Below, piece by piece: positions 391 to 16,188 of a stretch of 64,000 nt of DNA. Below the pieces are notes generated by a model that saw only the letters and a list, made by a program, of their open reading frames with translations, had not been told where the DNA came from and made no database searches. Origin of the DNA: an alpha proteobacterium AAP38 (lineage in GTDB: Bacteria; Pseudomonadota; Alphaproteobacteria; Azospirillales; Azospirillaceae). Position numbers and translations under genes: made by a program. Each line of letters begins with the position of its first letter. Position 1 is the first letter of the stretch. The DNA lies in NCBI GenBank assembly GCA_001296005.1, contig LJHR01000048.1, positions 26,628 through 90,627 of the forward strand, read 5' to 3'.

Positions 391-394
<4 letters not shown>
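1..394 (+). CDS. ligJ: 4-oxalomesaconate hydratase, C-terminal part (truncated by window edge)
   Basis: The reading frame is open from base 2, so the 5' end lies outside the window; about 130 residues are visible. It is an amidohydrolase-superfamily enzyme. The segment PHGGGAVPFHWGRYRG resembles the active-site strand of oxalomesaconate hydratases (LigJ), which hydrate 4-oxalomesaconate to 4-carboxy-4-hydroxy-2-oxoadipate in the protocatechuate 4,5-cleavage pathway. Family assignment is recognition from memory, but it is strongly backed by the next three genes (ligA, ligB, ligC), whose products make its substrate. The stop overlaps the ligA start in an ATGA quadruplet, so translation is probably coupled. 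A related amidohydrolase acting on another carboxymuconate derivative is the alternative. Confidence 0.8.
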
Positions 395-2580
<2,186 letters not shown>

Positions 2581-2677: not shown

Positions 2678-3454
2678 TCATTCCCCGTCATAGCGGATGG
2701 CCTTGGCCGCTTCCGCTGACAGGATGAAGCCGATCGGTCGCTCGCTTTCCTCCCGCAGATGGGCGATCAGACTGGCCGTACGGGCCAGCAGCGATATGCC
2801 TTTCAATGCCGGCAAAGGGAAGCCCGCATCCAGCATCACCGCCGGGATGGCACCGTTCACATTGATTGGCAAATCCCGTCCGAACGCCGTCGGCAGGGCG
2901 GCCTTCACCGCGCGCAAGGTGGCCACATGCGCCCCCGATATGCCGCGCTCGTCGGCCAGACCCAGAAGGCGATGCGCGCGCGGGTCGCCGCCACTATGCT
3001 GGGGATGGCCAAAGCCGGGAATGGCGCGCTTCACGGCCCGGTACTCGTGCAACTTCGCCGTTACCACCGGCTCCAGCGCAGTTGCCCCAGCAGCTTCCAC
3101 CAGATCGGCCAGGAACCGGCCCGCCATTTCCGCACTGCCCAGAACCACACTGCCGCAACCGGACAGGCCCGCCGCGACAGCGCCCTGCATGGCCTCCGGG
3201 GCGGCGGCATAGGTCATGCGGGCGGCCACCACGCTGGGCACCAATCCATGTTCGGCAATGGCGGCCAGCACGGCATCGGCCATGAAACGCTGATCGTCGC
3301 TGGGTGTGTTGCCGGTGACCAGCAGCCAGAAATAGCTGGTAAAGTCCATCCGACCGATGATCTGCCCGCAAAGATCCAACCCCCGGACCCGGATGCTCTC
3401 CGCGTCTGAGGTGCAGATGGCACTGAAAGGCTGGTCGGTCTTGCCGATACGCAT
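2678..3454 (-). CDS. Citryl-CoA lyase / citrate synthase-like protein
   Basis: A 258-residue protein of the short citrate synthase fold. The motif GFGHPQHSGGDPRAHRL (residues 147-163, with H150) and INVNGAIPAVMLDAG match the catalytic core of citrate synthase and citryl-CoA lyase, but the large N-terminal domain of true citrate synthase is absent. Such proteins cleave citryl-CoA-like thioesters to acetyl-CoA and a 2-oxo acid. It is transcribed away from a class III CoA transferase, and the gap between them holds two palindromic operators. I infer that the pair activates and then cleaves a citrate-like acid; 4-carboxy-4-hydroxy-2-oxoadipate from the lig pathway is a chemically reasonable substrate. 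This is not shown by sequence alone. Confidence 0.72.
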   Translation of the reverse strand: MRIGKTDQPFSAICTSDAESIRVRGLDLCGQIIGRMDFTSYFWLLVTGNTPSDDQRFMADAVLAAIAEHGLVPSVVAARMTYAAAPEAMQGAVAAGLSGCGSVVLGSAEMAGRFLADLVEAAGATALEPVVTAKLHEYRAVKRAIPGFGHPQHSGGDPRAHRLLGLADERGISGAHVATLRAVKAALPTAFGRDLPINVNGAIPAVMLDAGFPLPALKGISLLARTASLIAHLREESERPIGFILSAEAAKAIRYDGE

Positions 3455-3520
3455 GGGGACGCTCCGGTCTCTGCTGATCTGCCGCCAGCTAACGCCCGGT
3501 CCGGTCGCTTGGCAAGAAAA

Positions 3521-3563
3521 TTCGATTATCGAAGTTGATTTCGATTGTCGAAATCGCTATACC
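3521..3563. promoter_or_regulatory. Two tandem IclR-type operators overlapping the CoA transferase promoter
   Basis: TTCGATTATCGAA (3521-3533, a perfect 6-1-6 palindrome) and TTCGATTGTCGAA (3540-3552, within the 19-bp palindrome GATTTCGATTGTCGAAATC at 3537-3555) are centred 19 bp apart. A plausible promoter for the CoA transferase is TTGATT (3535-3540), 17 bp, TATACC (3558-3563), so the second operator fills the spacer. The same operator type and geometry recurs before the TonB receptor gene. The IclR gene at 4858 is the obvious candidate ligand; binding is inference. Confidence 0.7.
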
Positions 3564-3657
3564 GGGTAACGGATGTTGCGGCGATGGCCGCCTGGCCGGT
3601 GCGTTCCGCCCGCCTGTGACCCCCGCGCCTGCGGTCCTTCCCTGATCGGAGCATGAG

Positions 3658-4788
3658 ATGGCAAAAGTCCTGAAGGATGTCAGGGTATTGGAAATGGGCA
3701 CCTTCATAACGGGGCCGGCGGCGGGAATGCTGCTGGCTGATCTGGGTGCCGATGTCATCAAGATCGAACAGCCGGGAACCGGCGATCCGTTCCGGGCCTT
3801 CAATGGCGGCTTCTACAGCCCGCATTTCCAGACCTATAACCGCAACAAGCGCTCCATCACCCTGGATACCCGCGAAGCGGCAGGACGTGACCAACTGGAC
3901 GCGCTTGTCGCTGACGCGGATATTTTCATCCAGAATTTCCGACCGGGTGCGGCGAACAAGCTGAATGTTGATGCCGACCGGCTGCGCGCGTTGAATCCGC
4001 GCCTGATCTACTGCGCCATTTCCGGCTTTGGCGCCACCGGCCCCGACAGCCAGCGGCCCGCCTTTGACACGGTAGCGCAGGCGGCTAGCGGTTTCCTGCG
4101 TCTGGTGCTGAACCCCGATAATCCACGCGTCGTGGGGCCGGCACTGGCCGATGCAATTACTGGATTCTATGCTGCCTATGGTATCCTGGGCGCCCTGCAT
4201 GAACGCAACCGGACCGGCCAGGGGCGTCTGGTGGAACTTTCCATGCTGGAGGCCATGTGCCATTTCAACCTGGATGACTTCACCCATTATTTCGCTGCCG
4301 ATCAGATCATGGGCCCTTACAGCCGGCCATCAGTATCGCAATCCTATGTGTTCGTTTGCGCGGACGGGAAATGGATCGCGCTGCACATGTCCTCGCCGCC
4401 GAAATTCTGGGAAGGGTTGGCCCAGGCCGTGGAATGGCCTGACATGTTGCAGCATCCCGAATTTGCCGACCGCCAGTCGCGGATCGCAAATTATGAAAAA
4501 GTGGTGGAGCGTCTGGCTCCCATTTTTCGCAGCCGCAACCTGTCGGACTGGTGCGAGCGGTTGAGCCGTCTCGACGTCCCACATTCGCCGGTACATGACG
4601 CGGCGGCGGCGCTTGCCACCGATCAGGCCCGTCATCTGGATCTGCGGGTGGAGGCGGAACATCCCAGCATGGGCCGGTTCCGCACCGTTCGCTGCCCGCT
4701 TTCCTTTGATGGGGAACGCGATCTGGCCATCACCCCGCCCCCTGTCCTGGGCCAGCATAATGCGGAGATTCTGGGCGATCAGGTTTAA
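3658..4788 (+). CDS. Class III CoA transferase (CaiB/BaiF family)
   Basis: A 376-residue family III CoA transferase, near the family's usual 380-430 residues. The N-terminal signature VLEMGTFITGPAAGMLLADLGADVIKIE (split here as VLEMGTFITGP and LLADLGADVIKIE) and the catalytic aspartate in GPALADAITG (D165) are present; this Asp forms the aspartyl-CoA anhydride. It moves CoA from a donor thioester to a carboxylic acid. Divergent from the citryl-CoA lyase-like gene and upstream of the IclR regulator, it likely makes the lyase's thioester substrate. The acid and CoA donor cannot be read from the sequence. Spacing to the next gene is 69 bp. Confidence 0.85.
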   Translation: MAKVLKDVRVLEMGTFITGPAAGMLLADLGADVIKIEQPGTGDPFRAFNGGFYSPHFQTYNRNKRSITLDTREAAGRDQLDALVADADIFIQNFRPGAANKLNVDADRLRALNPRLIYCAISGFGATGPDSQRPAFDTVAQAASGFLRLVLNPDNPRVVGPALADAITGFYAAYGILGALHERNRTGQGRLVELSMLEAMCHFNLDDFTHYFAADQIMGPYSRPSVSQSYVFVCADGKWIALHMSSPPKFWEGLAQAVEWPDMLQHPEFADRQSRIANYEKVVERLAPIFRSRNLSDWCERLSRLDVPHSPVHDAAAALATDQARHLDLRVEAEHPSMGRFRTVRCPLSFDGERDLAITPPPVLGQHNAEILGDQV

Positions 4789-4857: not shown

Positions 4858-5691
4858 ATGGCGGATAATGGGGTCAGGGGCGATGGCGCGGCGGAGCGGG
4901 AAAAGGACCCCGAATATCTGCTGACGCTGGAACGCGGCCTGACGGTCCTGCGCTCCTTCAATCAGCAGCGTCCCGAGATGCAATTGTCGGAAGTGGCCGC
5001 CGCCACCGGCCTCAGCCCGGCTGTGGCCCGCCGTTGCCTCAACACCCTGGTGGCGCTTGGCTATGTTGGGCGGCATGGCAGGCGGTTCCTGCTGCGGCCA
5101 GAGGTGCTGGTCTTCGGGTCGGCTTACCTGGCCTCGATGAACCTGGAACAGGTGGTGACGCCACACTTGCAGTCCCTGCGTGATGAAACGGGCGACAGTG
5201 CCTCCATGGCCACGCTGTCTGGACCGGATATCCTCTATCTCGTCCACGTATCAACCAACCGGCATATCCGTCTGGGCGCCAGTGTCGGCACACGCTATCC
5301 GGCCCATGCCACCTCGCTGGGCAAGGTGCTGCTGGCGTTTGAGCCGGAAAAGCTGCTGGAAGATTATCTGGTGACGGCAACGCTGAACCGCTTGACCGAA
5401 CGTACGCTTACCAACCGCGAGGAACTGACGGCGCGGCTGCTGCGTGTGCGGGAACTGGGGTATGATTCAGCGCTGGATGAGTTGGATTACGGCATCGTCT
5501 CGGTCGCGGTGCCGGTGCGGGACAAGGATGGCAATGTCTGCGCCTCCATCAACTGTTCCACATCCACCACCCGCATCTCCCAGGATGAGCTGGTGCGCAC
5601 CCGGTTGCCGCTGCTGCGCCGTGCCGCCCGTGATATCGAACTGTCGTTGCAGCAATGGCCCTTCCTGATGCATTCGCTGGCCCGCGGCTGA
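4858..5691 (+). CDS. IclR-family transcriptional regulator (PcaR/PobR-like)
   Basis: A 277-residue IclR regulator. The N-terminal winged HTH (about residues 25-80) includes LSEVAAATGLSPAVARRCL as recognition region. The C-terminal effector domain carries RYPAHATSLGKVLLA and ends with SINCSTSTTRIS, as in the PcaR/PobR/PcaU branch that responds to aromatic acids. It lies between the CoA transferase and the TonB receptor, and both of those genes are preceded by tandem TTCGAT-N-ATCGAA-type palindromes, so it is the probable regulator of this locus. Whether it activates or represses is unknown; the operators cover the -35/-10 spacer, which favours repression at those positions. An intrinsic terminator follows. 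Confidence 0.88.
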   Translation: MADNGVRGDGAAEREKDPEYLLTLERGLTVLRSFNQQRPEMQLSEVAAATGLSPAVARRCLNTLVALGYVGRHGRRFLLRPEVLVFGSAYLASMNLEQVVTPHLQSLRDETGDSASMATLSGPDILYLVHVSTNRHIRLGASVGTRYPAHATSLGKVLLAFEPEKLLEDYLVTATLNRLTERTLTNREELTARLLRVRELGYDSALDELDYGIVSVAVPVRDKDGNVCASINCSTSTTRISQDELVRTRLPLLRRAARDIELSLQQWPFLMHSLARG

Positions 5692-5766: not shown

Positions 5767-5828
5767 TTCGATAAACGGAAAAAACTTCGAACATCGAACT
5801 TGACTTCGATTATCGAAACATAGATTGT
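5767..5828 (+). promoter_or_regulatory. Three tandem IclR-type operator repeats before the TonB receptor gene
   Basis: Sites are centred at 5773 (TTCGATAAACGGA, 10 of 13 matches to the best site), 5792 (TTCGAACATCGAA, 5786-5798) and 5811 (TTCGATTATCGAA, 5805-5817, identical to a site at 3521), with exact 19-bp spacing. The last overlaps the final T of a TTGACT -35 element (5800-5805), the same offset as the -35/operator pair before the CoA transferase. The -10 is weak (TAGATT at 5821 or GATTGT at 5823). Shared control by the neighbouring IclR protein is inferred. Confidence 0.68.
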
Positions 5829-5949
5829 CCATTGCACGGGCAACGACCCGTGTGGACGCGATATGTCGCGGAACCAGTTCGCACCGGCCGCCGCAAGAAC
5901 GAACCGCGCCGTGCGCCATCAATGACAAATGACGAACGGGAGGTTTTGC

Positions 5950-8136
5950 ATGGCACGTTCCTCTTGGCGCTTCGGCTCTCTGGCCGGTGTCTCGGCCCTG
6001 GCGCTGGCAGCCACAGGCCCCGCATCGGCCCAATCCACAGCCCAGGCCGGCGCCTCGACCATTGAGGAGGTGGTGGTGACCGGCCTGCGCCGCCCGCAGG
6101 CGCAGCAGGATGTGCCGGCGGCTGTCACGGCCTTTACCGCTGACGCGATTGAGATGGCAGGCATTGAGAAGCCAGCCGATTTCATCGACCTGACCTCCAA
6201 CGTGACGCTGGTCGAAACTCAGAATGCCGGCAACGCCTTCATCATTATCCGCGGCATCACGCAGGCCCGTAACAGCGAGCCGTCGGTAGCCGTCATCGTC
6301 GATGGTGTGCAGCAGGTGAATGCTGCGCAGTTCAGCCAGGAACTGTTTGATATCGACCAGATCGAGGTGCTGAAAGGCCCACAGGGCGCGCTTTATGGCC
6401 GTAACGCCATCGGCGGCGCCATCGTGATCCGCACCAAACAGCCGACGGACACGTTCGATACGCGGGTCAAGGTGGGCGTAGAAAACGGCTTCGGCTATTC
6501 CGCCCGCGCGGGCATCAGCGGGCCTTTGTCGGACAAGGTGAAGTTCCGTCTGGCGGGGTCGTATGTGAACAGTGACGGCCTGATCCGTAACGCCTACCTG
6601 GATGAAAAAGCCGACCCGTATGAGGATCTATCTCTGCGCGGGACCCTTTTGTTTCAGCCGATGGACAATCTGACGGTCGATCTGCGCGGGTCCGTTTCAC
6701 GGCTGCGCACGCAGGCGCTGTATTTCAACATCGTCAATGATGTGAACAATACCAGCCTGCCGGTGCGCGTGAACAATCCCGGTCAGAATGACCGCGATAT
6801 GAACGGTACCTCGCTGCGCATCGCCTATGAAACCGACGCGGGCAGCCTGACGTCCGTCACCTCCTATGATCAGGTGAAGGAAATCCTGACCGGCGACGCG
6901 TTCGACTTCCTGCCCATCACGGAAAGCCTGTTCTATCAGATCCTGGGGTTCGACCTGAACCAGAGCCAATATCTGAATGTGAAGGCCTGGAGCGAAGAGT
7001 TGCGCTTTGCATCGCCCACCGATCAACCGTTTCAGTGGAGCGTGGGCGGCTACATGATCGGTACCAAGCGCTATATCTCCACCGGCAACATGATCGACCG
7101 GGGGCAGGGGGTGTTTCCCGTCTACCGCACGCCCAGCACCAACCCGCGTAATCCGCAATTCTCCTTCCTGGCCGACAGCCAGGATAATTTCGCCTGGGCC
7201 CTGTTCGCCAGCACGTCTTACGATCTGTCGGAGAAGCTGACGGCTGACTTGTCACTGCGTTATGACAAGGACAAGCGCGAGAATACAACGCTGACCCCCA
7301 CCGCCTATCTACCCAATGTCGCCGGGTTTCCGGCGGGCCGCAGCGGGGAGGTACGCAACGAAACCTTCACCTCCTGGCAGCCGAAGGCGACGCTGACCTA
7401 CAAGGCCGATGACGCGCTGACGCTTTATACCGGCTATTCCAAGGGCTTCCGCAGCGGCGGGTTCAACCAGACCGGGGTGGGGGCCGTGGCGGCGGCCAAT
7501 GGCATCCTGGGTGTGTCGGACGTGTTCAAGGCGGAAACGGCCAGCACGCTGGAGGCCGGGTTTAAATCGCAGCTGTTGGACCGCAAACTGCGCCTCAATG
7601 GCTCCGTCTACAACACCATCTCTGACAATTCCTATTTCTTCGTCTTCCTGGCGGCCAATTCCACGCAGAACCTGGGCAATGTGCCGGAAACCCGCCTGCG
7701 CGGTTTTGAACTGGATGCAACGGCCTTCCTGACGACGGGTCTGCAGGTCAATCTGGGCTTCGGTTTTACCGATAGCAAGATTAAGGAATTCGCTGACCCG
7801 ACCGTGCTGGGCAACGAAGCGCCACTGATCTCCCGCTACACATTCAACATGGGTGTGCAGTACAGCACCGAACTGGGCGATAGCGGCCTGACGGGCACGG
7901 CGCGGGCAGATTACCGGCGCGTCGGCAAGACCTGGTTCGACATCCAGAACAGCACCGTGCGCGACCCGCTGGACCTTGTCGATATCCGGCTGGGTATCGA
8001 GGGGGAGGGCTGGAACCTGTCCGCTTATTCCGACAATCTGTTCAACAAGAAGTATAATGCCGAATTCTCGCCCGGCGGTTTCGTCTTCAAGGGACGGCCC
8101 CGCCGCTATGGTCTTGAAGCGGGCATGAAGTTCTGA
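5950..8136 (+). CDS. TonB-dependent outer-membrane receptor
   Basis: A 728-residue outer-membrane receptor. The signal peptide ends near ASAQS (about residue 28), a TonB-box-like TIEEVVVTG follows, then the plug domain (DVPAAVTAF, QIEVLKGPQGALYGRNAIGGAI) and a beta-barrel ending in a terminal phenylalanine (GLEAGMKF). It takes up a large or scarce substrate using TonB energy. The start at 5950 has GGGAGG at 5938-5943; an ATG at 5921 or 5929 lacks it. Its position in an aromatic acid locus and the IclR-type operators upstream suggest uptake of a lignin-derived aromatic or its oligomer rather than an iron siderophore; this is inference. It heads the run wrbA-VOC-hydrolase. Confidence 0.9.
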   Translation: MARSSWRFGSLAGVSALALAATGPASAQSTAQAGASTIEEVVVTGLRRPQAQQDVPAAVTAFTADAIEMAGIEKPADFIDLTSNVTLVETQNAGNAFIIIRGITQARNSEPSVAVIVDGVQQVNAAQFSQELFDIDQIEVLKGPQGALYGRNAIGGAIVIRTKQPTDTFDTRVKVGVENGFGYSARAGISGPLSDKVKFRLAGSYVNSDGLIRNAYLDEKADPYEDLSLRGTLLFQPMDNLTVDLRGSVSRLRTQALYFNIVNDVNNTSLPVRVNNPGQNDRDMNGTSLRIAYETDAGSLTSVTSYDQVKEILTGDAFDFLPITESLFYQILGFDLNQSQYLNVKAWSEELRFASPTDQPFQWSVGGYMIGTKRYISTGNMIDRGQGVFPVYRTPSTNPRNPQFSFLADSQDNFAWALFASTSYDLSEKLTADLSLRYDKDKRENTTLTPTAYLPNVAGFPAGRSGEVRNETFTSWQPKATLTYKADDALTLYTGYSKGFRSGGFNQTGVGAVAAANGILGVSDVFKAETASTLEAGFKSQLLDRKLRLNGSVYNTISDNSYFFVFLAANSTQNLGNVPETRLRGFELDATAFLTTGLQVNLGFGFTDSKIKEFADPTVLGNEAPLISRYTFNMGVQYSTELGDSGLTGTARADYRRVGKTWFDIQNSTVRDPLDLVDIRLGIEGEGWNLSAYSDNLFNKKYNAEFSPGGFVFKGRPRRYGLEAGMKF

Positions 8137-8163: not shown

Positions 8164-8766
8164 ATGGCGAAGGTACTTGTGCTTTACTATTCCAGTTACG
8201 GCCATATCGAAACCATGGCCACCGCGATGGCCGACGGTGCGCTGTCGGTGGCGGGGGCGGATGTCGTGGTCAAACGCGTGCCGGAACTGGTGCCGGATGA
8301 GGTGGCAAGGGCTGCCGGTATCAGTCTGGATCAGGCGGCCCCCATCGCCAGCCCTGGGGAACTGGGCGACTATGATGCCATCATCTTCGGCACGCCGACG
8401 CGCTTTGGCAATATGGCGGCGCAGATGCGCAACTTCCTGGACCAGACGGGCGGGCTTTGGGCCAAGGGCGCGCTGGTCGGCAAGGTGGGCAGCGTCTTCG
8501 TCTCCACCGCCAGCCAGCATGGCGGCCAGGAAACTACCATCACCTCCTTCCACACCACGCTGCTGCATCATGGCATGATCATTGTCGGTCTGCCCTATAG
8601 CTGGGCCGGCGCGACGCGGATGGATGAGATCAGCGGCGGCACTCCCTATGGCGCCAGCACCCTGGCCGGCGCCGATGGGTCTCGCCAGCCCAGCGCCAAC
8701 GAGTTGGAAGGGGCCCGGTTCCAGGGGCGCCATGTCACGGAAATCGCCACACGGCTGTTCGGCTGA
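8164..8766 (+). CDS. wrbA: NAD(P)H:quinone oxidoreductase, WrbA type
   Basis: A 200-residue flavodoxin-like protein matching WrbA in length (about 198) and motifs: the FMN phosphate loop [12 protein letters not shown] near the N-terminus, [18 protein letters not shown] in the middle, and [12 protein letters not shown]. It performs two-electron reduction of quinones with NAD(P)H and FMN as cytosolic tetramers, avoiding semiquinones. It follows the TonB receptor after 27 bp and precedes a VOC protein, so it is likely in the same operon, perhaps handling quinones formed from catechol- or hydroquinone-type intermediates. That role is inferred from context. Confidence 0.88.
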
Positions 8767-8789: not shown

Positions 8790-9323
8790 ATGAGTGCGAA
8801 ACTTCCCAATCGTCTGCACCACACTGCCTATGTCACCCGCGACCTGGAGGCGACGCGCCATTTCTATGAAGATGTGCTGGGGATCCCGCTGATCGCCACC
8901 TGGTGCGAAAAGGACATGCTGTTCGGTGCCGAGCGCACCTATTGCCATTGCTTCTTTGGGTTGGCGGATGGCAGTGCGCTGGCCTTTTTCCAGTTTGCCG
9001 AACCGGAGGATCAGGCGCTGTTCGGACCGCCCATGCCGGAATCCCCCTTCCACCACATCGCCCTGCATGTCGACGCCGACACCCAGGCGCAGATCGAAAG
9101 CCGCATCCGCGCGGCAGGCTTTACCGAGCCCGACACCTACACGCTGGAACATGGCTATTGCCGGTCAGTCTATATCAAGGACCCGAACGGCATGATCCTG
9201 GAATTTACCCATGACGCGCCGTCGGCGGCGGCCCTGGAGCAGGCAAAGCGCGAAACGGCGCGGGCCGATCTGGCCCGCTGGCTGGGGGGTGACCGCAGCG
9301 TCAATAACACCTATCGTCATTGA
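8790..9323 (+). CDS. VOC-superfamily protein (glyoxalase/extradiol dioxygenase fold)
   Basis: A 177-residue vicinal-oxygen-chelate protein. Candidate metal ligands are H in RLHHTAYVT, a glutamate or histidine around YCHCFFGL, the histidine in FHHIALHVD and the glutamate in DPNGMILEFTHD, the typical layout of two beta-alpha-beta-beta-beta modules. It is too short for a classical two-domain catechol dioxygenase. Members include glyoxalases, fosfomycin-type enzymes and single-module dioxygenases. The ATG at 8790 has AGAGAGGA at 8775-8782. The stop overlaps the next gene's start (TGATG), so they are translationally coupled. Ring cleavage or isomerisation of an aromatic intermediate is possible; the substrate is unknown. 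Confidence 0.78.
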   Translation: MSAKLPNRLHHTAYVTRDLEATRHFYEDVLGIPLIATWCEKDMLFGAERTYCHCFFGLADGSALAFFQFAEPEDQALFGPPMPESPFHHIALHVDADTQAQIESRIRAAGFTEPDTYTLEHGYCRSVYIKDPNGMILEFTHDAPSAAALEQAKRETARADLARWLGGDRSVNNTYRH

Positions 9324-10114
9324 TGATGCAGACCCAGGTTGCCGTCGACGGTGGAAGCCTGTCCGTGGAGATTGCCGGGGCCGGGAAGCCGGCCCTGGTC
9401 ATGCTCCATGGCTGGACTCTGGACCGGCGCATGTGGCGGCCCCAGGTTCGGGGACTGTCGGATTGCGCCACCCTGATACTGCCCGACCGGCGCGGTTTCG
9501 GAAGGTCGCAGGCGCCACCTGGATTGTTGCAGGAACCAGATGATATCCCTGCCTTGCTGGACCATTTCGGTTTGGCTTCAGCCATTCTCGTTGCGCATTC
9601 ACAGGCCGGACGGGTGGCGCTGATGGCGGCGGCCCGGCATCAGGATCGGGTTGCCGGCCTTGTCCTGCTGGCGGCGGCGCATGATGCGGCCCCGCCGGAC
9701 CCTGTGACGGAACCCGCACTTCCCCTTGCGCAATTGGTGGAACATGTCCGGGCGGGCAACCTGCCCGAAGCGGTGGCACTTTGGCGGGCCCATCCGATGC
9801 TGCGGACCGATGACGCGGAAACGTCGCGGCTGCTGGATGAGATGCTGGCCGATTACCAGGGCAGGGATCTGCTGTCGCCGCCCGCGGTCCTGCCGGTGAC
9901 GGATGAACTGCTGGCGACCATCACTTGCCCTAGTTTGGTGATGGTCGGCGATCTGGATACGCCGTCACGGTTGGTGGCGGCACATCGGCTGTGTCAGGGG
10001 TTGTGGCAATCTGCGATGCAGTTTTTTACGCAGGCTGGCCACATGGCGAACATAAGCCATGCCACTGCCGTCAATCAGGCAATCAGGGATTATGTGACCC
10101 GCAATTTTCCCTGA
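9323..10114 (+). CDS. Alpha/beta hydrolase
   Basis: A protein of about 263 residues with the alpha/beta-hydrolase layout: oxyanion motif MLHGWTLDRRMW, nucleophile elbow AHSQAGR (Ser in the G-x-S-x-G-like turn, here A-H-S-Q-A), acid in GDLDTPSR and histidine in QAGHMANIS. It probably hydrolyses an ester, lactone or C-C bond such as a ring-cleavage product or an enol-lactone (PcaD-like). It is the last gene of the TonB receptor-wrbA-VOC run; the start at 9323 overlaps the VOC stop, with an adjacent ATG at 9326. Context suggests aromatic catabolism; the substrate is not identifiable. Confidence 0.78.
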   Translation: MMQTQVAVDGGSLSVEIAGAGKPALVMLHGWTLDRRMWRPQVRGLSDCATLILPDRRGFGRSQAPPGLLQEPDDIPALLDHFGLASAILVAHSQAGRVALMAAARHQDRVAGLVLLAAAHDAAPPDPVTEPALPLAQLVEHVRAGNLPEAVALWRAHPMLRTDDAETSRLLDEMLADYQGRDLLSPPAVLPVTDELLATITCPSLVMVGDLDTPSRLVAAHRLCQGLWQSAMQFFTQAGHMANISHATAVNQAIRDYVTRNFP

Positions 10115-10244
10115 CATTTCCTCCCCTTCGGAGATTGGGATCGCCGCCCACTCCTACTGAAGCCTGCACTTCTTTCTTGAAGTTCATGATAACGTGGCTC
10201 CTATTCCGCAATCCGAAATGCGCGAAGACGCTTGGAGCCTGTGC

Positions 10245-12503
10245 ATGGACTTTGTCCTTACTCTGAATGATTTCGTGAAGACATTCATCGGCCTTGCGGC
10301 ATCGGAGGGTCAGAAGGCCCGGTTCATCCAGATCGGGGCAGGCCCGCATTTCAGTCCGTTTGCACCTTTCCTGGACCGTCTTGCCGGCTATGTCGTCGAT
10401 CCGTTGCTGGAAGAAGGGCATGACAGCCGCTATGTCGGGGTGAGGGCCGGTATCGGGCGGGGTATGGGGGTTACCCGTCTGCGCCACCTGGACGAAACGG
10501 CGATCAATAATGGCCTGCTGCCAGCCCGTTTCAGGGAACTTCGTTCCTTCGGACTGATCTCCATGCTGGACAGTGGCGGTTGGCTGGCGGGCATGTGCCC
10601 GAATGAGGAGACACGGGCAGCCATCCGTATGCTGGTCCGTGAAACGCTGGTTGCCTGCATGCCGCTGCGATATCTCGTCGGTCGCTACGGTATCGGGGCC
10701 ACGGACATGCTGGCCATCAGCACCGCCGGCACCGAACTGGAAATTCTGGAGCAGTTGAGCGATCTGCCGTCGCCGCCGCGTGGTCTGCTGGTTGATGTTG
10801 AGAATCTGACGCTGATCCAACGTCAGAAGGTGATGGATATCTTTGTTGCCCGCAATTATCGCCCTGCCTGGATCAGCCAGGATCTGTTGGCGGGCTTCCA
10901 TGACCCGATACGGGAAATGCGTCGACATGTGCCTGCTTTGCGGCAGGCGGCTAGCCTGCGCGGACAGGCGCCTGCCGCCCTTGCCACACTGCTGGCGGAT
11001 TGTGCCGACGATCTGGGCCAGCCGACCGAGCTGGAGCGGTTAAATACCATCATTGACCTTGTCGAAGCGGGGCGTATCGAGGATACCGCCCCCCTTGTCG
11101 AGGTACTGGTCAGCCGCACCCGCGACAGAGAAGTCCTGCAACAGCAACTGGGCCCCTTGATTGCCGAGGCTATCCGGCAAAGAGCCATGTATGTGGAGCA
11201 GGGTGACGAGGCCCGTATCGAGACGATGCAGCGCATCATCGCCTCTCTCTATGATAAATGCCCTGCCGCAAACCGTTGGGCGATGGGCAGAAGCACAGCG
11301 CAGCTTAAGGAGCCGGCGGCGGCACGTTATGCCCATCTGGTGCTGGCGCACGAACCGGACGACGTCATGGCGCTGCATATGGCGGCACGGTTTGCCACCG
11401 CAACGGGCCTTAAGGATGAGGAGCTTGCTCTGCGCCGACGCTTCATGGCGCAGCAGACCGATCGCCTGCTGCAAATGTATAATTGCCTGCGTCTCATCTG
11501 GTTTTATCTGCATGGCCCGCTGAATGAACAGACAAAGGCAGCCATCATGCATTGCCGGAACCTGCCTCTGCGGCAATCGCGGGCCCTCTATGGCGATCCT
11601 TCATTACAGATTGCCCATGATCATTGCGAACTGATGCTGGATTGCCTGGATCTTGATTTTCTGAACCACCCACAGGATGTCGCCATACAGCCATTGCTGC
11701 TGCATGATCATCGCGGACGGCGCCTGGACCTTGATCAAGTCCGGCAGGAGGCGCTGCGCGAGGGCGTCCGGACTGTGCTGCTTGCGGCGGGGGATGACCT
11801 GTATCTTGACCGCTATGCCCGTTCCTTCGCCAAGTCGGCGCTGGCCAACAGCGATGAACCCATCATGGTCGTCCTGCACGCCATCGGTGGCCGGGACCGT
11901 ATAGAAGACATCGCCGCACGGATTGGGGTTATATCCGAACGGCTCTATTATTCGGCGGATGATTTCGACGATGCGCCCTACCGCTACACGACCGTCAATA
12001 ATGAGTGCACGTTTGAAAAGCCGGTGGCCCATTATCAGTGTGTGCGGTTTGATGTAGCCGACAGCCTGCTGCAAGGGCTTGGTCTGCCCGTCATCGCGGC
12101 GGATATCGACACGCTGGTCCTGGGCGGGACGTCATCGCTGTCCGCGCGCACCGACGATGTCATCCTGAACTTCAACCCGCTGGCCACCGGGTTTGCCGCC
12201 TTGATAACGGCCAACCTCCTGCGGCTTCGCCCAACGCCGGGCGCCCGGCGTTTCATGGGGGCCGTGCGTGCCTATCTGCGGGGTGAACTGGCGAAGCCCA
12301 AGATTACCCGTTGGATTGATCAGGTGGCTTTGCTGATGGCCAAACTGCATTGCGAACAGAACCGCACGCCCGTGATCATCGGCGGATTTGAGGAAAAGGA
12401 CATCAACAACACCATCTATCTGCGCTTTGACAATTACTCCATCCGCTTCCTGTCACTTTACAGCACGTTCGATCTGAACAGCATCCCCGCCGCCTATCGC
12501 TGA
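10245..12503 (+). CDS. FkbM-like domain plus helical and glycosyltransferase-like domains
   Basis: A protein of about 752 residues. The first 220 residues look like a FkbM-type methyltransferase with an eroded SAM site: [13 protein letters not shown] stands where motif I is expected, and [15 protein letters not shown] stands where FkbM proteins have KIDVEG-x-ELEVL. A helical, TPR-like middle (about 250-490) follows. The last 250 residues hold [11 protein letters not shown] (DxD-like) and [14 protein letters not shown], typical of GT-A nucleotide-sugar transferase folds. Start 10245 is chosen for GGAG at 10234-10237; 10218 and 10194 are in-frame alternatives. It may modify a surface polymer or protein. 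Its 3' end overlaps napC by 10 bp on the other strand. Confidence 0.6.
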
Positions 12504-13156
12504 CCGCTGTGCAGGTCGGGCAGGGATGCTGCCGCCCGATCCGGCATGGTCCAGATGGGCACACCCGTCATGTCGGGAAGGCGGTGGGCAATGCCCTTGT
12601 GACAGTCGATGCAGGTCGCCTGACCCGTGAACAGGAAGCGCTGGTGTGCGTCGGCCCCGCGTGCGCCCTGTCGAGTGATGTCCATGCTGTCGGCGCTGTG
12701 GCAGTTGCGGCATTCCAGGGAATTGTTGGCCTTCAGCCGTGCCCATTCGTGGCCGGCCAGTTCCCGGCGCTTGGCCTCGAACTTTTCCGGTGTATCGATA
12801 GTGCCGAAAATCTTGCCCCAGACCTCCTTGGATGCCTGCATCTTGCGGGCGATCTTGTCGGTCCAGTTATGGGGGACGTGGCAATCGGGACAGGTGGCGC
12901 GCACGCCCGACCGGTTGGAATAATGGATGGTCTGTTTCAGGTCGGCATAGGGATTGTCCTTCATCTCGTGACAGCCGATGCAGAACGCCTCCTTGTTGGT
13001 CATCTCCAGCGCTGTATTGAACCCACCCCACCAGATGACGCCCGCCACGAAGCCGCCGATAGTCAGGAACCCGATGCCCAGATGGGCCGCGGGGCGGTTG
13101 AAGGCAGTCCAGGCGGCCCTGGCCAGAGACAGGACCCGTTGGATGATGATCATCAT
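12494..13156 (-). CDS. napC: NapC/NirT-type tetrahaem cytochrome c
   Basis: A 220-residue membrane-anchored cytochrome of the NapC/NirT family. One N-terminal membrane helix ([20 protein letters not shown]) precedes four haem sites: CIGCH, CPDCH, CRNCH and CIDCH. It passes electrons from the quinol pool to the periplasmic NapAB complex. The ATG at 13156 overlaps the napB stop (ATGA), and a second ATG is at 13153. It is the last gene of napEFDABC; no terminator is visible before the convergent gene, whose end it overlaps. Confidence 0.95.
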
Positions 13157-13683
13157 TTGCCCTCCCCGACCGGAGGACGATTTTCACGAATGACGCTGTC
13201 CACATCGCGGAAGGTGTTGACCACGCGCGGCTGTGCGTCCGTCTGCGGCACATGGCATTGCAGGCAGAAATAGCGGCGGGTGGAGACGGCACCCAGCACC
13301 TGCCCGTCGCGGTCCTGGAAATGCGTGACGGAGATCATGGGGGCCTGACTGTCGCCCGTGAATTCGCGGGCGTGGCAGGTCAGGCACTTGTTGGCACGCA
13401 GGTCGAGCTGATAGCCGGCGATGGCATGCGGGATGACAGGCGGCTGTTCAGGATAGTTGCGCTGCCGGCGCTGATCATCGCTTATATCCTTGGGCATGGA
13501 AGGTGCCTCCTGCACCAACAGCCCCTCGGCACCTGTGAAGGCGGGCCGTCCGCTGGCCTTCACGTCGCGGGTGCTGGCGGCAGGTACCGGGTCGGTGGCA
13601 AAGGCCCGCTGCGCCATGGGTTGCAGCAGCAGGGGCAGGGCGGCTAGCAGGGCCAGCAGCACGGGGGTGTGGCGCTTGCTCAT
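13153..13683 (-). CDS. napB: Periplasmic nitrate reductase, dihaem cytochrome subunit
   Basis: A 176-residue exported cytochrome c with a Sec signal peptide (hydrophobic [16 protein letters not shown], cleavage near AFATD) and two haem sites, CLTCH and CLQCH. The region [21 protein letters not shown] is typical of NapB. It accepts electrons from NapC and delivers them to the NapA iron-sulfur cluster in the periplasm. Starts 3 bp after napA ends and overlaps napC by 4 bp, as usual for a co-translated operon. Confidence 0.95.
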
Positions 13684-13686
13684 GGT

Positions 13687-16188
13687 TCAGGCCTCCCCGA
13701 CCGGGGTGATACGTACGGCGCATTTCTTGAAATCGGTCTGTTTGGAGATGGGGTCGGTAGCGTCCAGCGTAACGCGGTTGATCAGGACATCGGCATCAAA
13801 CCAAGGCACGAAGACCAGACCGCGCGGCGGTTTGTTCCGTCCCCGCGTCTCCACCCGCGCCCGCACCTGTCCCCGGCGCGAGGCCACCACGACCTCTTGC
13901 CCGCGCCGGACCTGCATCGCCTGGGCATCGTCCGGGTGCATGTAGCAGAGCGCCTGCGGCACCGCCTTGTGCAGTTCCGGCACGCGCCGGGTCATCGACC
14001 CGCTGTGCCAATGTTCCAGCACGCGGCCCGTGGACAGCCAGAACGGATAGTCCTTGTCCGGGCTTTCAGCGGGCGGTTCATAGGGCAGGGCGAATATGCG
14101 CGCCTTGCCATCCTTGTGCCCGTAGAAGCGCATGCCCTCGCCCGCGGGCACATAGGGATCGCTCCCCTCCCGGAAGCGCCAGCGGGTTTCCTTGCCATTC
14201 ACCACCGGCCAGCGTAGGCCGCGTTCGGCGTGATAGGTGTCATAGGGAGCCAGATCATGGCCATGACCTCGGCCAAAGCTGGCATATTCCTCAAACAGGC
14301 CCTTTTGCAGGTAGAAGCCGAATTCCTTGGCCTCCCGGTTCTCATACTCCTTGTCGCATTCGGTCACGGGGAACCTGTCCACCTGACCGTTGCGGTAGAG
14401 GATATCGTACAGGGTCTTGCCGCGATATTCCGGCGCCTTGGCCAGCAATTCCTCCGGCCATACCTCCTCCACCTTGAAGCGTTTGGAGAATTCTACCAGC
14501 TGCCACAGGTCGGATTTCGCCTCGCCCGGCGCATCGACCAACTGGTGCCAGACCTGGGTCCGGCGTTCGGCATTGCCATAGGCCCCTTCCTTCTCCACCC
14601 ACATGGCGGCGGGCAGCACCAGATCGGCGGCCATGGTGGTGACGGTGGGATAGGCGTCTGACACGACGATGAAATTGTCGGGGTTGCGGTATCCGGGCCA
14701 GGTCTCGTTGGCGGTGTTAGGGGCGGCCTGCATATTGTTGTTCACCTGCACCCAATAGCAGTTCAGCTTGCCATCCTTCAGCATCCGGTCTTGTTGCACC
14801 GCGTGAAAGCCCGGCTTGGCCGGGATGGTGCCTTCCGGCAGTTTCCACAGATGTTCGGCATGGGCGCGGTGTTCGGGATTGGTCACCACCATGTCGGCGG
14901 GCAGCCGGTGCGAGAAGGTTCCCACCTCACGCGCTGTGCCACAGGCGCTGGGCTGTCCCGTCAGGGAGAAGGGGCTGTTGCCGGGTTCGGCAATTTTGCC
15001 CGTGAGCAGGTGGATGTTGTAGACAAGGTTGTTGGCCCAGACACCGCGCGTATGCTGGTTGAAACCCATGGTCCAGAAGCTGACCACCTTGACCTTTGGA
15101 TCGGCGTACAGCTCGGCCAGCGCCTTCAGCCGGGCGGCGGGGACGCCCGACTGTGCCGCCACCTTTTCCAGCGTATAGGGGGCGATGAAGGCGGCGAATT
15201 CATCAAAGCTGATGGGATCGCTTTCATTGGCCTTGGCGGCGTTCTTGGCCGCCACCTCCAGCGGATGGGTGGGGCGCAGGCCATAGCCGATATCGTCCCG
15301 GCCCTTCACGAAGGTTGTGTATTTGCTGACGAAATCCTTGTTGACGCGCCCCGTCTTGATGATGTGGCTGGCGATGTAGTTCAGGATGGCCAGATCGGTC
15401 TGTGGCGTAAAGACCATCGGGATGTCGGCCAGCTCAAACGACCGATGTTCAAAGGTCGACAGCACCGCTACCTTCACATCCGGGTTGGACAGGCGGCGGT
15501 CGGTGACGCGGGTCCACAGGATGGGGTGCATCTCCGCCATGTTGCTGCCCCAGAGGACAAAGGCGTCGGCGGCCTCGATATCGTCGTAACAGCCCATCGG
15601 TTCATCAATGCCGAAGGTGCGCATGAAGCCGGCGACGGCGGATGCCATGCAATGGCGGGCATTGGGGTCGATATTGTTGGACCGGAAACCGGCCTTCATC
15701 AGCTTGGACGCGGCATAGCCCTCATGGACGGTCCATTGCCCGGACCCGAACATGCCGATGGCTTCCGGCCCCTTGGCCTTCAGCGTCGCCTTCCATTTCT
15801 CCGCCATGATATCGAAGGCTTGGTCCCAGGTGACGGGCGTGAAGTCCCCTTCCTTGGCATATTTGCCGTCCTTCATGCGCAACATGGGGGTGGTCAGCCG
15901 GTCCTGCCCATAGATGATCTTGGACAGGAAATAGCCCTTCACGCAGTTCAGGCCGCGATTGACCTCTGATTTCTGGTCGCCATGGGTGGCGACGATGCGC
16001 CCCTCCTTCACGCCGACCATGACGCCGCAGCCTGTGCCGCAGAAACGACAGGGGGCCTTGGACCATTTCATCTTGGCATCCAGACCGGTGGGCAGCTGTG
16101 TGGCAGCGGCGTCCAGGGTCAAACCTGCTGAGGCAGCGGCGGTCAGGGCCGCCTGGGCCTTCAGATAATCGCGTCGTGTCAGGGTCAT
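13687..16188 (-). CDS. napA: Periplasmic nitrate reductase, catalytic subunit
   Basis: An 833-residue molybdopterin oxidoreductase, the usual NapA length. A twin-arginine signal is present (TRRDYLK at the N-terminus, cleavage near AAATQ). The [4Fe-4S] ligands are C47, C50, C54 and C82 (CRFCGTGC and LNCVKG). C180 in [10 protein letters not shown] is the predicted Mo ligand. It reduces nitrate to nitrite in the periplasm using bis-MGD. The next genes supply maturation (napD, overlapping by 4 bp upstream) and electron transfer (napB, napC). Nap in this organism could serve redox balancing or the first step of denitrification; no nitrite reductase is in the window. Confidence 0.97.

What the first reader, a model, noticed from the sequence alone, without database searches (positions are those of the whole stretch)
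2678..4788. CoA transferase plus citryl-CoA lyase inside a protocatechuate 4,5-cleavage locus
The lig pathway ends in 4-carboxy-4-hydroxy-2-oxoadipate, normally split by the aldolase LigK. Here a divergent pair (class III CoA transferase, short citrate synthase-like lyase) sits next to ligJABC. The compound is citrate-like, so activation to a CoA thioester and lyase cleavage would give acetyl-CoA directly. This would be a CoA-dependent alternative or supplement to LigK. The families and layout are seen; the reaction is inference.
Basis: inference. Interest (0 to 1): 0.7.

Follow-up and report, generated by a model that had tools for sequence, protein, structure and literature searches.

The report
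CoA lyase pair ending ring-breaking pathway
Two genes beside a protocatechuate-breakdown cluster share a predicted control site with the gene set on their other side and not with that cluster, and they likely finish a different ring-breaking pathway by joining coenzyme A to a ring fragment that a citrate-lyase relative would then split.

Summary
The two genes are as described: a citrate-synthase-fold lyase (2678-3454, -) and a class III CoA transferase (3658-4788, +). The LigK-bypass idea is not supported. ligK lies 5.5 kb away on the same contig, outside the window. LigK is present in 9 of 9 ligA-bearing Azospirillaceae genomes, while lyase and ligA are not associated (both in 2 of 82; 2.4 expected). 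None of the 80 loci kept carries lig genes. A tandem palindrome occurs without mismatch only twice in the 5.78 Mb genome: between the pair, and before the TonB receptor that heads receptor-WrbA-VOC-hydrolase genes. Elsewhere the pair sits beside three unrelated ring-cleavage dioxygenase classes (VOC, LigB, intradiol); one lies within 6 kb of the lyase in 10 of 17 sampled genomes (0.23 expected). The pair is likely the CoA-dependent end of a separate, apparently uncharacterised ring-cleavage pathway. Surprise: this "citryl-CoA lyase" clade lacks the catalytic aspartate (0 of 92 loci keep it), so true citryl-CoA cleavage is doubtful. Substrate and products are inferred.

The parts
2678..3454 (-). 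Citryl-CoA lyase-like protein (citrate synthase fold, 258 aa); His69, His150, Arg159, Arg225 kept, catalytic Asp replaced by Asn200
3658..4788 (+). Class III (CaiB/BaiF) CoA transferase, 376 aa; Asp165 aligns with the conserved Asp of solved relatives
3521..3552 (.). Predicted operator 1: tandem palindromes TTCGATTATCGAA / TTCGATTGTCGAA in the lyase/CoA-transferase divergent intergenic region
4858..5691 (+). IclR-type regulator, nearest to the PcaR/PcaU/PobR subfamily model (259.5 bits, under the 284.75 cut-off)
5786..5817 (.). Predicted operator 2: tandem palindromes TTCGAACATCGAA / TTCGATTATCGAA before the TonB receptor
5929..8136 (+). TonB-dependent outer-membrane receptor
8164..8766 (+). 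WrbA-type NAD(P)H:quinone oxidoreductase
   Evidence: TIGR01755 332.7 bits, cut-off 132.5
8790..9323 (+). Single-domain VOC protein, predicted ring-cleavage dioxygenase
9326..10114 (+). Alpha/beta hydrolase, weakly PcaD-like
391..798 (+). ligA, protocatechuate 4,5-dioxygenase alpha subunit (neighbouring cluster, not part of the module)
800..1642 (+). ligB, protocatechuate 4,5-dioxygenase beta subunit (neighbouring cluster)
1642..2580 (+). ligC-like Gfo/Idh/MocA dehydrogenase (neighbouring cluster; name by position, no curated LigC model passed)

Best explanation
The lyase-like gene and the CoA transferase gene share a divergent intergenic region with a tandem palindrome whose only other mismatch-free copy in this genome lies before the TonB receptor gene downstream, so the pair likely forms the last two steps of that gene set's own ring-cleavage pathway, in which a ring-fission hydroxy acid would be turned into a CoA thioester and is predicted to be split into an acyl-CoA and an oxo acid. 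Shown by sequence: gene families, shared palindrome, conserved linkage, ligK in the lig cluster, and loss of the lyase's catalytic aspartate. Inferred: the TonB receptor would import the compound; WrbA would keep it in the hydroquinone state; the VOC protein would open the ring; the hydrolase would trim the product. In some relatives a LeuCD-type hydro-lyase would hydrate the fragment. The CoA transferase would then activate a citramalate-like or citrate-like acid, and the lyase would cleave it with a modified active site. The IclR regulator is predicted to bind both palindromes. The lig cluster next door runs through LigK and is a separate unit.
For: Palindrome: two mismatch-free copies in the whole genome, at 3521-3552 and 5786-5817, none at lig genes; reversed-pattern control 0. 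Among the 80 related loci, 64 carry a site at up to 3 mismatches: 63 between CoA transferase and lyase plus one at lyase alone, and 49 have one before the TonB receptor; control 1 site in 1.4 Mb. The inner 13 bases of two of the four palindromes fit the PcaU consensus quoted in PMC8222616 (passages), and the local IclR is closest to that subfamily. Linkage: in 62 loci with 7.5 kb or more on that side, CoA transferase 62, VOC 62, IclR 49, TonB receptor 47, WrbA 44. Unrelated dioxygenase classes: LigB-type next to the pair in rhizobia, Rhodococcus and Nonomuraea, intradiol in Burkholderia glumae, Variovorax and two sampled genomes, VOC plus FAD hydroxylase in Rhodococcus rhodochrous. In 17 sampled genomes a dioxygenase lies within 6 kb in 10 (0.23 expected); leaving out own and sphingomonad genomes and VOC, 3 of 11 (0.11 expected, p 1.4e-4). 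All 10 also have a CoA transferase nearby; none of the 4 genomes without one does. VOC model: best PDB match 9u42, titled homogentisate 1,2-dioxygenase, E 2.7e-12. Separation from lig.
Against: No expression, binding or enzyme data. Substrate unknown. The clade's missing catalytic Asp argues against ordinary citryl-CoA cleavage. In 7 of 17 sampled genomes no dioxygenase of the classes searched lies within 6 kb, and 4 of 17 show no CoA transferase relative beside the lyase; several of these have TctC or AMP-binding neighbours instead. The VOC linkage in sphingomonads is one conserved arrangement, not many independent events. LeuC or LeuD is in 0 of the 80 sphingomonad-type loci and none is visible in this genome's module. 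MetE-like genes found in 57 and 30 of 80 loci are unexplained, and for the one searched (family 8) this genome has only a 26% match. The VOC protein is only 24% identical to its nearest solved dioxygenase, and glyoxalases and FosX/FosA also match the fold. The outer G and C of the IclR-group consensus are not met, and 16 of 80 loci lack the palindrome.
Confidence: 0.6

Rival explanations
1. One reading: the pair activates 4-carboxy-4-hydroxy-2-oxoadipate and cleaves it to acetyl-CoA as an alternative or supplement to LigK.
For: Adjacency to ligJABC in this genome and in N. cyanobacteriorum; the ring-fission acid is citrate-like; active-site His and Arg residues are kept; elsewhere the pair does sit beside LigB-type dioxygenases, though of a subfamily below the curated cut-offs.
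Against: ligK in the cluster; LigK present in 9 of 9 ligA-positive genomes whether or not the lyase is there; both genes in 2 of 82 genomes, 2.4 expected; 0 of 80 related loci with lig genes; palindrome absent from lig genes. Cleavage at that position would also leave 2,4-dioxoglutarate, an awkward product (chemical reasoning).
Confidence: 0.06
2. The pair degrades a small tri- or dicarboxylic acid taken up from outside (citramalate, itaconate, tricarballylate type) and is only incidentally near dioxygenases.
For: TctC-, TRAP- or AMP-binding neighbours in several loci; tcuAB near the Martelella locus; 7 of 17 sampled genomes without a dioxygenase within 6 kb; the second-best solved relative of the transferase is named succinate-hydroxymethylglutarate CoA-transferase.
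Against: Dioxygenase within 6 kb in 10 of 17 genomes against 0.23 expected; WrbA, aromatic hydroxylases and PcaU-like palindromes in the same loci.
Confidence: 0.18
3. The protein is no longer a C-C lyase: with the aspartate lost it performs another reaction on a CoA ester (for example hydrolysis, decarboxylation or isomerisation).
For: Asp replaced by Asn or Ser in 92 of 92 loci; in a second set of 31 loci, by N, S, T or A in the 19 of this clade, while the 12 others keep Asp (at least three of the 19 repeat loci). PDB titles show Asp-to-Ala mutants of ATP-citrate lyase captured with citryl-CoA or substrates.
Against: Both active-site His, both Arg and the fold are kept; frequent pairing with a CoA transferase (80 of 80 related loci, 13 of 17 sampled genomes) fits a CoA-ester lyase.
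Confidence: 0.16

Closest known systems
Citryl-CoA lyase of Hydrogenobacter thermophilus (6hxp) and the lyase module of ATP-citrate lyase
   Same: Same fold, best Foldseek and phmmer match; both His and the Arg residues kept.
   Different: NVDG motif reads NVNG here and NVSG, NVSA, NATG or NGAG in relatives: the aspartate is gone. Usually paired with a CoA transferase, not a citryl-CoA synthetase.
Itaconate/citramalate degradation (CoA transferase, hydratase, citramalyl-CoA lyase; recalled)
   Same: Same logic: CoA transferase activates a hydroxy diacid, a lyase gives acetyl-CoA and an oxo acid.
   Different: That lyase is a CitE-type TIM barrel (recalled); here it is citrate-synthase fold, and the neighbours are ring-cleavage genes.
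Protocatechuate 4,5-cleavage (lig) pathway
   Same: Adjacent in the genome; aromatic catabolism.
   Different: Has its own ligK, ligU and LysR regulator; no shared palindrome; no association across 82 genomes.
PcaU/PcaR/PobR-type IclR regulons
   Same: Regulator nearest to that subfamily; inner palindrome TTCGATTATCGAA fits the core of the PcaU consensus.
   Different: Regulator under the model's cut-off; outer bases of the consensus not met; gene content differs: receptor, WrbA, VOC, CoA transferase, lyase.
VOC-type homogentisate 1,2-dioxygenase (9u42)
   Same: Best structural and sequence match of the VOC protein over nearly its full length; His and Glu positions align.
   Different: 24% identity; substrate of the present protein unknown.

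Membership tests
Citryl-CoA lyase (function) | Citrate synthase-superfamily fold | tested here: met
   AlphaFold2 model (mean pLDDT 76.8) matches 6hxp, E 8.9e-10
Citryl-CoA lyase (function) | NCBIfam NF004868 score above cut-off | tested here: met
   307.8 bits, cut-off 193; 16 of the 17 sampled genomes that pass this cut-off hold an Asp-less protein
Citryl-CoA lyase (function) | Two active-site His and citrate-binding Arg | tested here: met
   His69, His150, Arg159, Arg225 in 92 of 92 loci; role assignment recalled
Citryl-CoA lyase (function) | Catalytic Asp (NVDG) | tested here: not met
   Asn in 81, Ser in 11, Asp in 0 of 92 loci; Asp kept in the 12 loci outside the clade
Class III CoA transferase | PF02515 domain and conserved Asp | tested here: met
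   357.9 bits; Asp165 aligns with Asp of 10uh and 9br7; catalytic role recalled
Class III CoA transferase | Transferase activity and acceptor acid | not testable with these tools
   needs enzyme assay
lig protocatechuate pathway | Co-occurrence with ligA across genomes beyond chance | tested here: not met
   both in 2 of 82 genomes, 2.4 expected
lig protocatechuate pathway | Shared control site with lig genes | tested here: not met
   palindrome absent from lig genes; other kinds of control site not tested
PcaU/PcaR-type IclR regulon | GTNCG-N5-6-CGNAC palindrome with extra repeats | tested here: inconclusive
   inner TTCG-N5-CGAA in tandem, in 64 of 80 loci, but the outer G and C of the consensus are not met
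PcaU/PcaR-type IclR regulon | Regulator above TIGR02431 cut-off | tested here: not met
   259.5 bits, cut-off 284.75
VOC ring-cleavage dioxygenase | Fold and metal-ligand positions of a VOC dioxygenase | tested here: inconclusive
   9u42 best match, His and Glu aligned, but glyoxalases and FosX/FosA also match

The most novel reading that the evidence does not exclude
A widespread, so far unnamed CoA-dependent lower pathway for ring cleavage: in alpha- and betaproteobacteria and actinobacteria, fragments made by VOC, LigB-type or intradiol dioxygenases converge on one terminal pair, a class III CoA transferase and an aspartate-less citrate-synthase-fold lyase that splits the CoA ester to an acyl-CoA and an oxo acid by a mechanism unlike citrate synthase.
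Probability: 0.4. Interest if true: 0.8.

Novelty: new variant of a known kind. Interest (0 to 1): 0.6.

Why it matters
Ring-cleavage pathways are usually described as ending in a few lower routes, such as beta-ketoadipate, meta-cleavage aldolases and LigK-type aldolases (recalled). A shared CoA-transferase and lyase terminus behind three unrelated dioxygenase classes would be another route, and it is directly testable because a candidate operator, regulator and minimal gene set are now named. It also flags a likely misannotation: 17 of 398 sampled Pseudomonadota genomes pass the NF004868 'citryl-CoA lyase' cut-off, and in 16 of these 17 the protein lacks the catalytic aspartate, so the name could be misread as evidence for citrate cleavage or reverse-TCA carbon fixation.

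Tried and rejected
Flavonoid or isoflavone A-ring pathways (fde, ifc) were considered because they combine hydroxylation and glyoxalase-type A-ring cleavage. In PMC11069340 the term 'CoA' does not occur in the main text; PMC11303751 was searched only for the naringenin pathway and operon terms. The idea is left open. Literature searches for citryl-CoA lyase with protocatechuate, 4-carboxy-4-hydroxy-2-oxoadipate with CoA-transferase, citryl-CoA lyase with CoA-transferase, citrate synthase-like with extradiol terms, citryl-CoA lyase with hydroxyquinol or isopropylmalate-dehydratase terms, and citramalyl-CoA lyase with aromatics gave listings in which I saw no paper on this module. Of the papers listed there I opened one, PMC2864759, for a single passage on the reverse TCA cycle. 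Only an open-access library was searched. PMC12718150 was checked for homogentisate and glyoxalase and held nothing on 9u42.

One search searched LigK with a misframed query (9 stops); the corrected query is. The 120-aa protein beside the rhizobial LigB was tested as a LigA relative: profile probability 63%, P 7e-5, too weak to claim. The genus table (4 lyase, 7 ligA, 2 both of 11) is too small to decide.

The plasmid loci were picked by hand from ranked lists, not drawn at random: 13 of 133 lyase-matching records opened, of which 9 have a dioxygenase near the pair (read with 46 and 75); 6 more opened from the dioxygenase side, of which 3 hold the pair (the other three judged from annotation alone).
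Full report
OBSERVATION. The window contains the two genes as stated: lyase 2678-3454 on the minus strand and CoA transferase 3658-4788 on the plus strand. The lyase scores 307.8 bits against NF004868 citryl-CoA lyase (cut-off 193). The transferase scores 357.9 bits against PF02515. ligA, ligB, a ligC-like gene and the end of ligJ are beside them. The host genome belongs with Niveispirillum: named matches are a Niveispirillum MAG (98%, L019) and N. cyanobacteriorum (97.7%).

LIGK IS PRESENT. The window starts inside the lig cluster. On the same contig, ligK lies at C43:23121-23786 (408.5 bits, cut-off 304.5, no internal stop), 5.5 kb from the lyase, with a 4-oxalomesaconate tautomerase gene (543.5 bits, cut-off 440), an amidohydrolase that I read as LigI (no curated equivalog passed) and a LysR regulator.

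NO TIE TO LIG IN RELATIVES. Of 82 Azospirillaceae genomes, 22 have a lyase relative at E 1e-30 or better, 9 have ligA, and 2 have both (this one and G465, whose lyase coordinates equal those of N. cyanobacteriorum); 2.4 are expected by chance. All 9 ligA genomes have ligK above cut-off; the two Niveispirillum genomes with the lyase but no ligA, both fragmented drafts (860 and 540 contigs), have none above cut-off. The search for related loci confirmed 179 relatives and kept the best 80; among these 80, none has LigA, B, C, I, J, K or U at 35% identity or more over 40% of the query, and 61 have 8 kb or more on the side where lig would lie. The Niveispirillum MAG L019, 98% identical in the lyase, has 7,986 bases on that side and no lig gene. 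The arrangement beside lig was seen only in this lineage.

WHAT DOES STAY WITH THE PAIR. In the 62 loci with 7.5 kb or more on the CoA-transferase side, the transferase is found in 62, VOC in 62, MetE-like family 3 in 53, IclR in 49, alpha/beta hydrolase in 48, TonB receptor in 47, WrbA in 44 and MetE-like family 8 in 24. The order is largely kept. In the window these are IclR 4858-5691, TonB receptor 5929-8136, WrbA 8164-8766, VOC 8790-9323 and hydrolase 9326-10114. MetE-like genes are not among them; for family 8 the genome's best match is 26% identical, family 3 was not searched genome-wide.

SHARED PALINDROME. The lyase/transferase intergenic regions share a tandem palindrome. The pattern TTCGNNNNNCGAA-NTTGNN-TTCGNNNNNCGAA occurs without mismatch at two places in the whole 5.78 Mb genome: window 3521-3552 between the pair, and 5786-5817 before the TonB receptor. 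Other hits with up to 3 mismatches are the reverse-strand readings of these sites, one overlapping copy, and one 3-mismatch site on contig C29; the reversed-pattern control gives 0. No single half (TTCGNNNNNCGAA) lies in the lig part of L010. In the 80 related loci, at up to 3 mismatches, 64 carry sites: 63 between transferase and lyase plus one (L026) at lyase alone; 49 have one before the TonB receptor, 5 before VOC, 2 before MetE-like genes and 5 elsewhere (a locus can count under several); the reversed-sequence control gives 1 site in 1.4 Mb. Of the 16 loci without a site, 15 show no IclR or TonB receptor gene and one (L086) is a 7.8-kb contig that begins inside the transferase. The passages of PMC8222616 that I saw give TTTGTTCGATWATCGMACAMA for PcaU and a GTNCG-N5-6-CGNAC group consensus, and report additional half-sites for PcaU, PobR and HmgR. 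Two of the four palindromes here (TTCGATTATCGAA) fit the inner 13 bases of the PcaU consensus; the other two differ inside, and the outer G and C are not met in the window. The local regulator scores best against the PcaR/PcaU/PobR model, 259.5 against a cut-off of 284.75. That it binds these sites is inferred.

RING-CLEAVAGE COMPANY IN OTHER LINEAGES. LigB-type: Martelella, Aminobacter MSH1, Rhizobium SSA_523, Sinorhizobium B11, Neorhizobium galegae (transferase and LigB genes in two pieces) and Nonomuraea, plus Rhodococcus NBC_00297 with an aromatic hydroxylase, CoA transferase, lyase, LigB and LeuD. Intradiol: Burkholderia glumae (intradiol, lyase, aromatic hydroxylase, CoA transferase, LeuC, LeuD) and Variovorax; in Cupriavidus necator N-1 the gene beside lyase and intradiol is an AMP-binding protein and the CoA transferase is 4.5 kb on. 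VOC: Rhodococcus rhodochrous BX2 with an FAD aromatic hydroxylase and a hydrolase. For a less selective view I took the 17 of 398 Pseudomonadota genomes with the lyase above cut-off and located LigB (33 hits), intradiol (37) and homologues of the window's VOC at E 1e-15 (11) in them. One lies within 6 kb of the lyase in 10 of 17, against 0.23 expected. Leaving out VOC and the own and sphingomonad genomes, it is 3 of 11 against 0.11 (p 1.4e-4). A CoA transferase relative lies in the fetched stretch in 12 of 16 genomes and in the own genome, so in 13 of 17; all 10 dioxygenase cases are among these 13. Seven genomes show no dioxygenase of these classes within 6 kb, and several of those carry TctC or AMP-binding genes. 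LeuC and/or LeuD lie in the fetched stretch of six loci, L103, L109, L113, L116, L150 and L153, but in 0 of the 80 related loci. A LeuCD hydro-lyase would fit hydration of an unsaturated ring fragment to a citramalate-type acid (inference).

THE LYASE HAS LOST ITS ASPARTATE. Aligned with citryl-CoA lyase 6hxp, the motif NVDG reads NVNG. In 92 loci (L019-L110) position 200 is Asn in 81 and Ser in 11, never Asp, while His69, His150, Arg159 and Arg225 are unchanged in 92 of 92. In a second set of 31 loci, the 19 of this clade have N, S, T or A, and the 12 others (11 below the model's cut-off and L133 above it) all keep Asp; L133 also lacks the first His. The model has a citrate-synthase fold, best match 6hxp (E 8.9e-10), at moderate confidence (mean pLDDT 76.8). 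Titles in the same listing name ATP-citrate lyase D541A with citryl-CoA and D1026A mutants; that these are the same Asp is recalled. I therefore do not file it as a citryl-CoA lyase by function. A lyase with altered proton handling, or another reaction on the same kind of CoA ester, are both open.

THE VOC PROTEIN. The AlphaFold2 model (pLDDT 87) has 9u42, titled homogentisate 1,2-dioxygenase from Acinetobacter, as best PDB match by E-value (2.7e-12, TM 0.71/0.75, 24% identity), followed by glyoxalases and L-DOPA dioxygenase. phmmer also lists 9u42 first (E 1.6e-10). With a WrbA quinone reductase next to it, a hydroquinone or catechol substrate is likely. The compound is not identified.

MODEL. 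Receptor uptake, quinone reduction, ring opening, trimming, CoA transfer, lyase cleavage: the gene families and their linkage are shown, every reaction is inferred. Confidence is higher that the pair belongs to this module and not to lig than that the final step is an acyl-CoA-forming cleavage.

LIMITS. No transcripts or assays; 82 Azospirillaceae and an even draw of 398 Pseudomonadota genomes; genomes treated as independent; hand-picked plasmid loci; only three dioxygenase classes searched; literature limited to an open library and mostly to listings.

Noticed in passing
L010:3898-5061 (contig C43, upstream of the window): The LysR regulator beside ligK matches the LysR helix-turn-helix domain in two stretches, an apparent duplicated DNA-binding region.
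   Followed up: no
L010:5130-5999: A DUF1932/6-phosphogluconate-dehydrogenase-like gene sits between the LysR gene and ligJ in the lig cluster, conserved in N. cyanobacteriorum; role unknown.
   Followed up: no
L019-L098: Two families of cobalamin-independent methionine-synthase-like proteins lie near the pair in 57 and 30 of 80 loci; for the second this genome has only a 26% match. Their part in the pathway is unexplained.
   Followed up: partly
L029, L037, L038, L052, L058 and similar loci: A variant arrangement (VOC, CoA transferase, lyase without IclR or palindrome) is followed by genes that look by eye like GMC oxidoreductase, cytochrome P450 and metallo-beta-lactamase-type proteins.
   Followed up: no
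L102:12873-13238, L106:11908-12291, L113:10858-11223: A conserved protein of about 120 aa with no Pfam match follows the LigB-type gene; weak similarity to LigA.
   Followed up: partly
L107:9823-11900 and L101:7434-9889: CoA transferase and LigB-type genes appear in two pieces in one N. galegae plasmid, and an IS66 element lies between IclR and lyase in an Agrobacterium plasmid.
   Followed up: no
window 10194-12503 (+): A 769-aa open reading frame after the module has no Pfam match.
   Followed up: no
window 12494-16188 (-): Periplasmic nitrate reductase type genes (NapC and NapB by Pfam; a NapA-like molybdopterin ORF by eye) follow the module.
   Followed up: no
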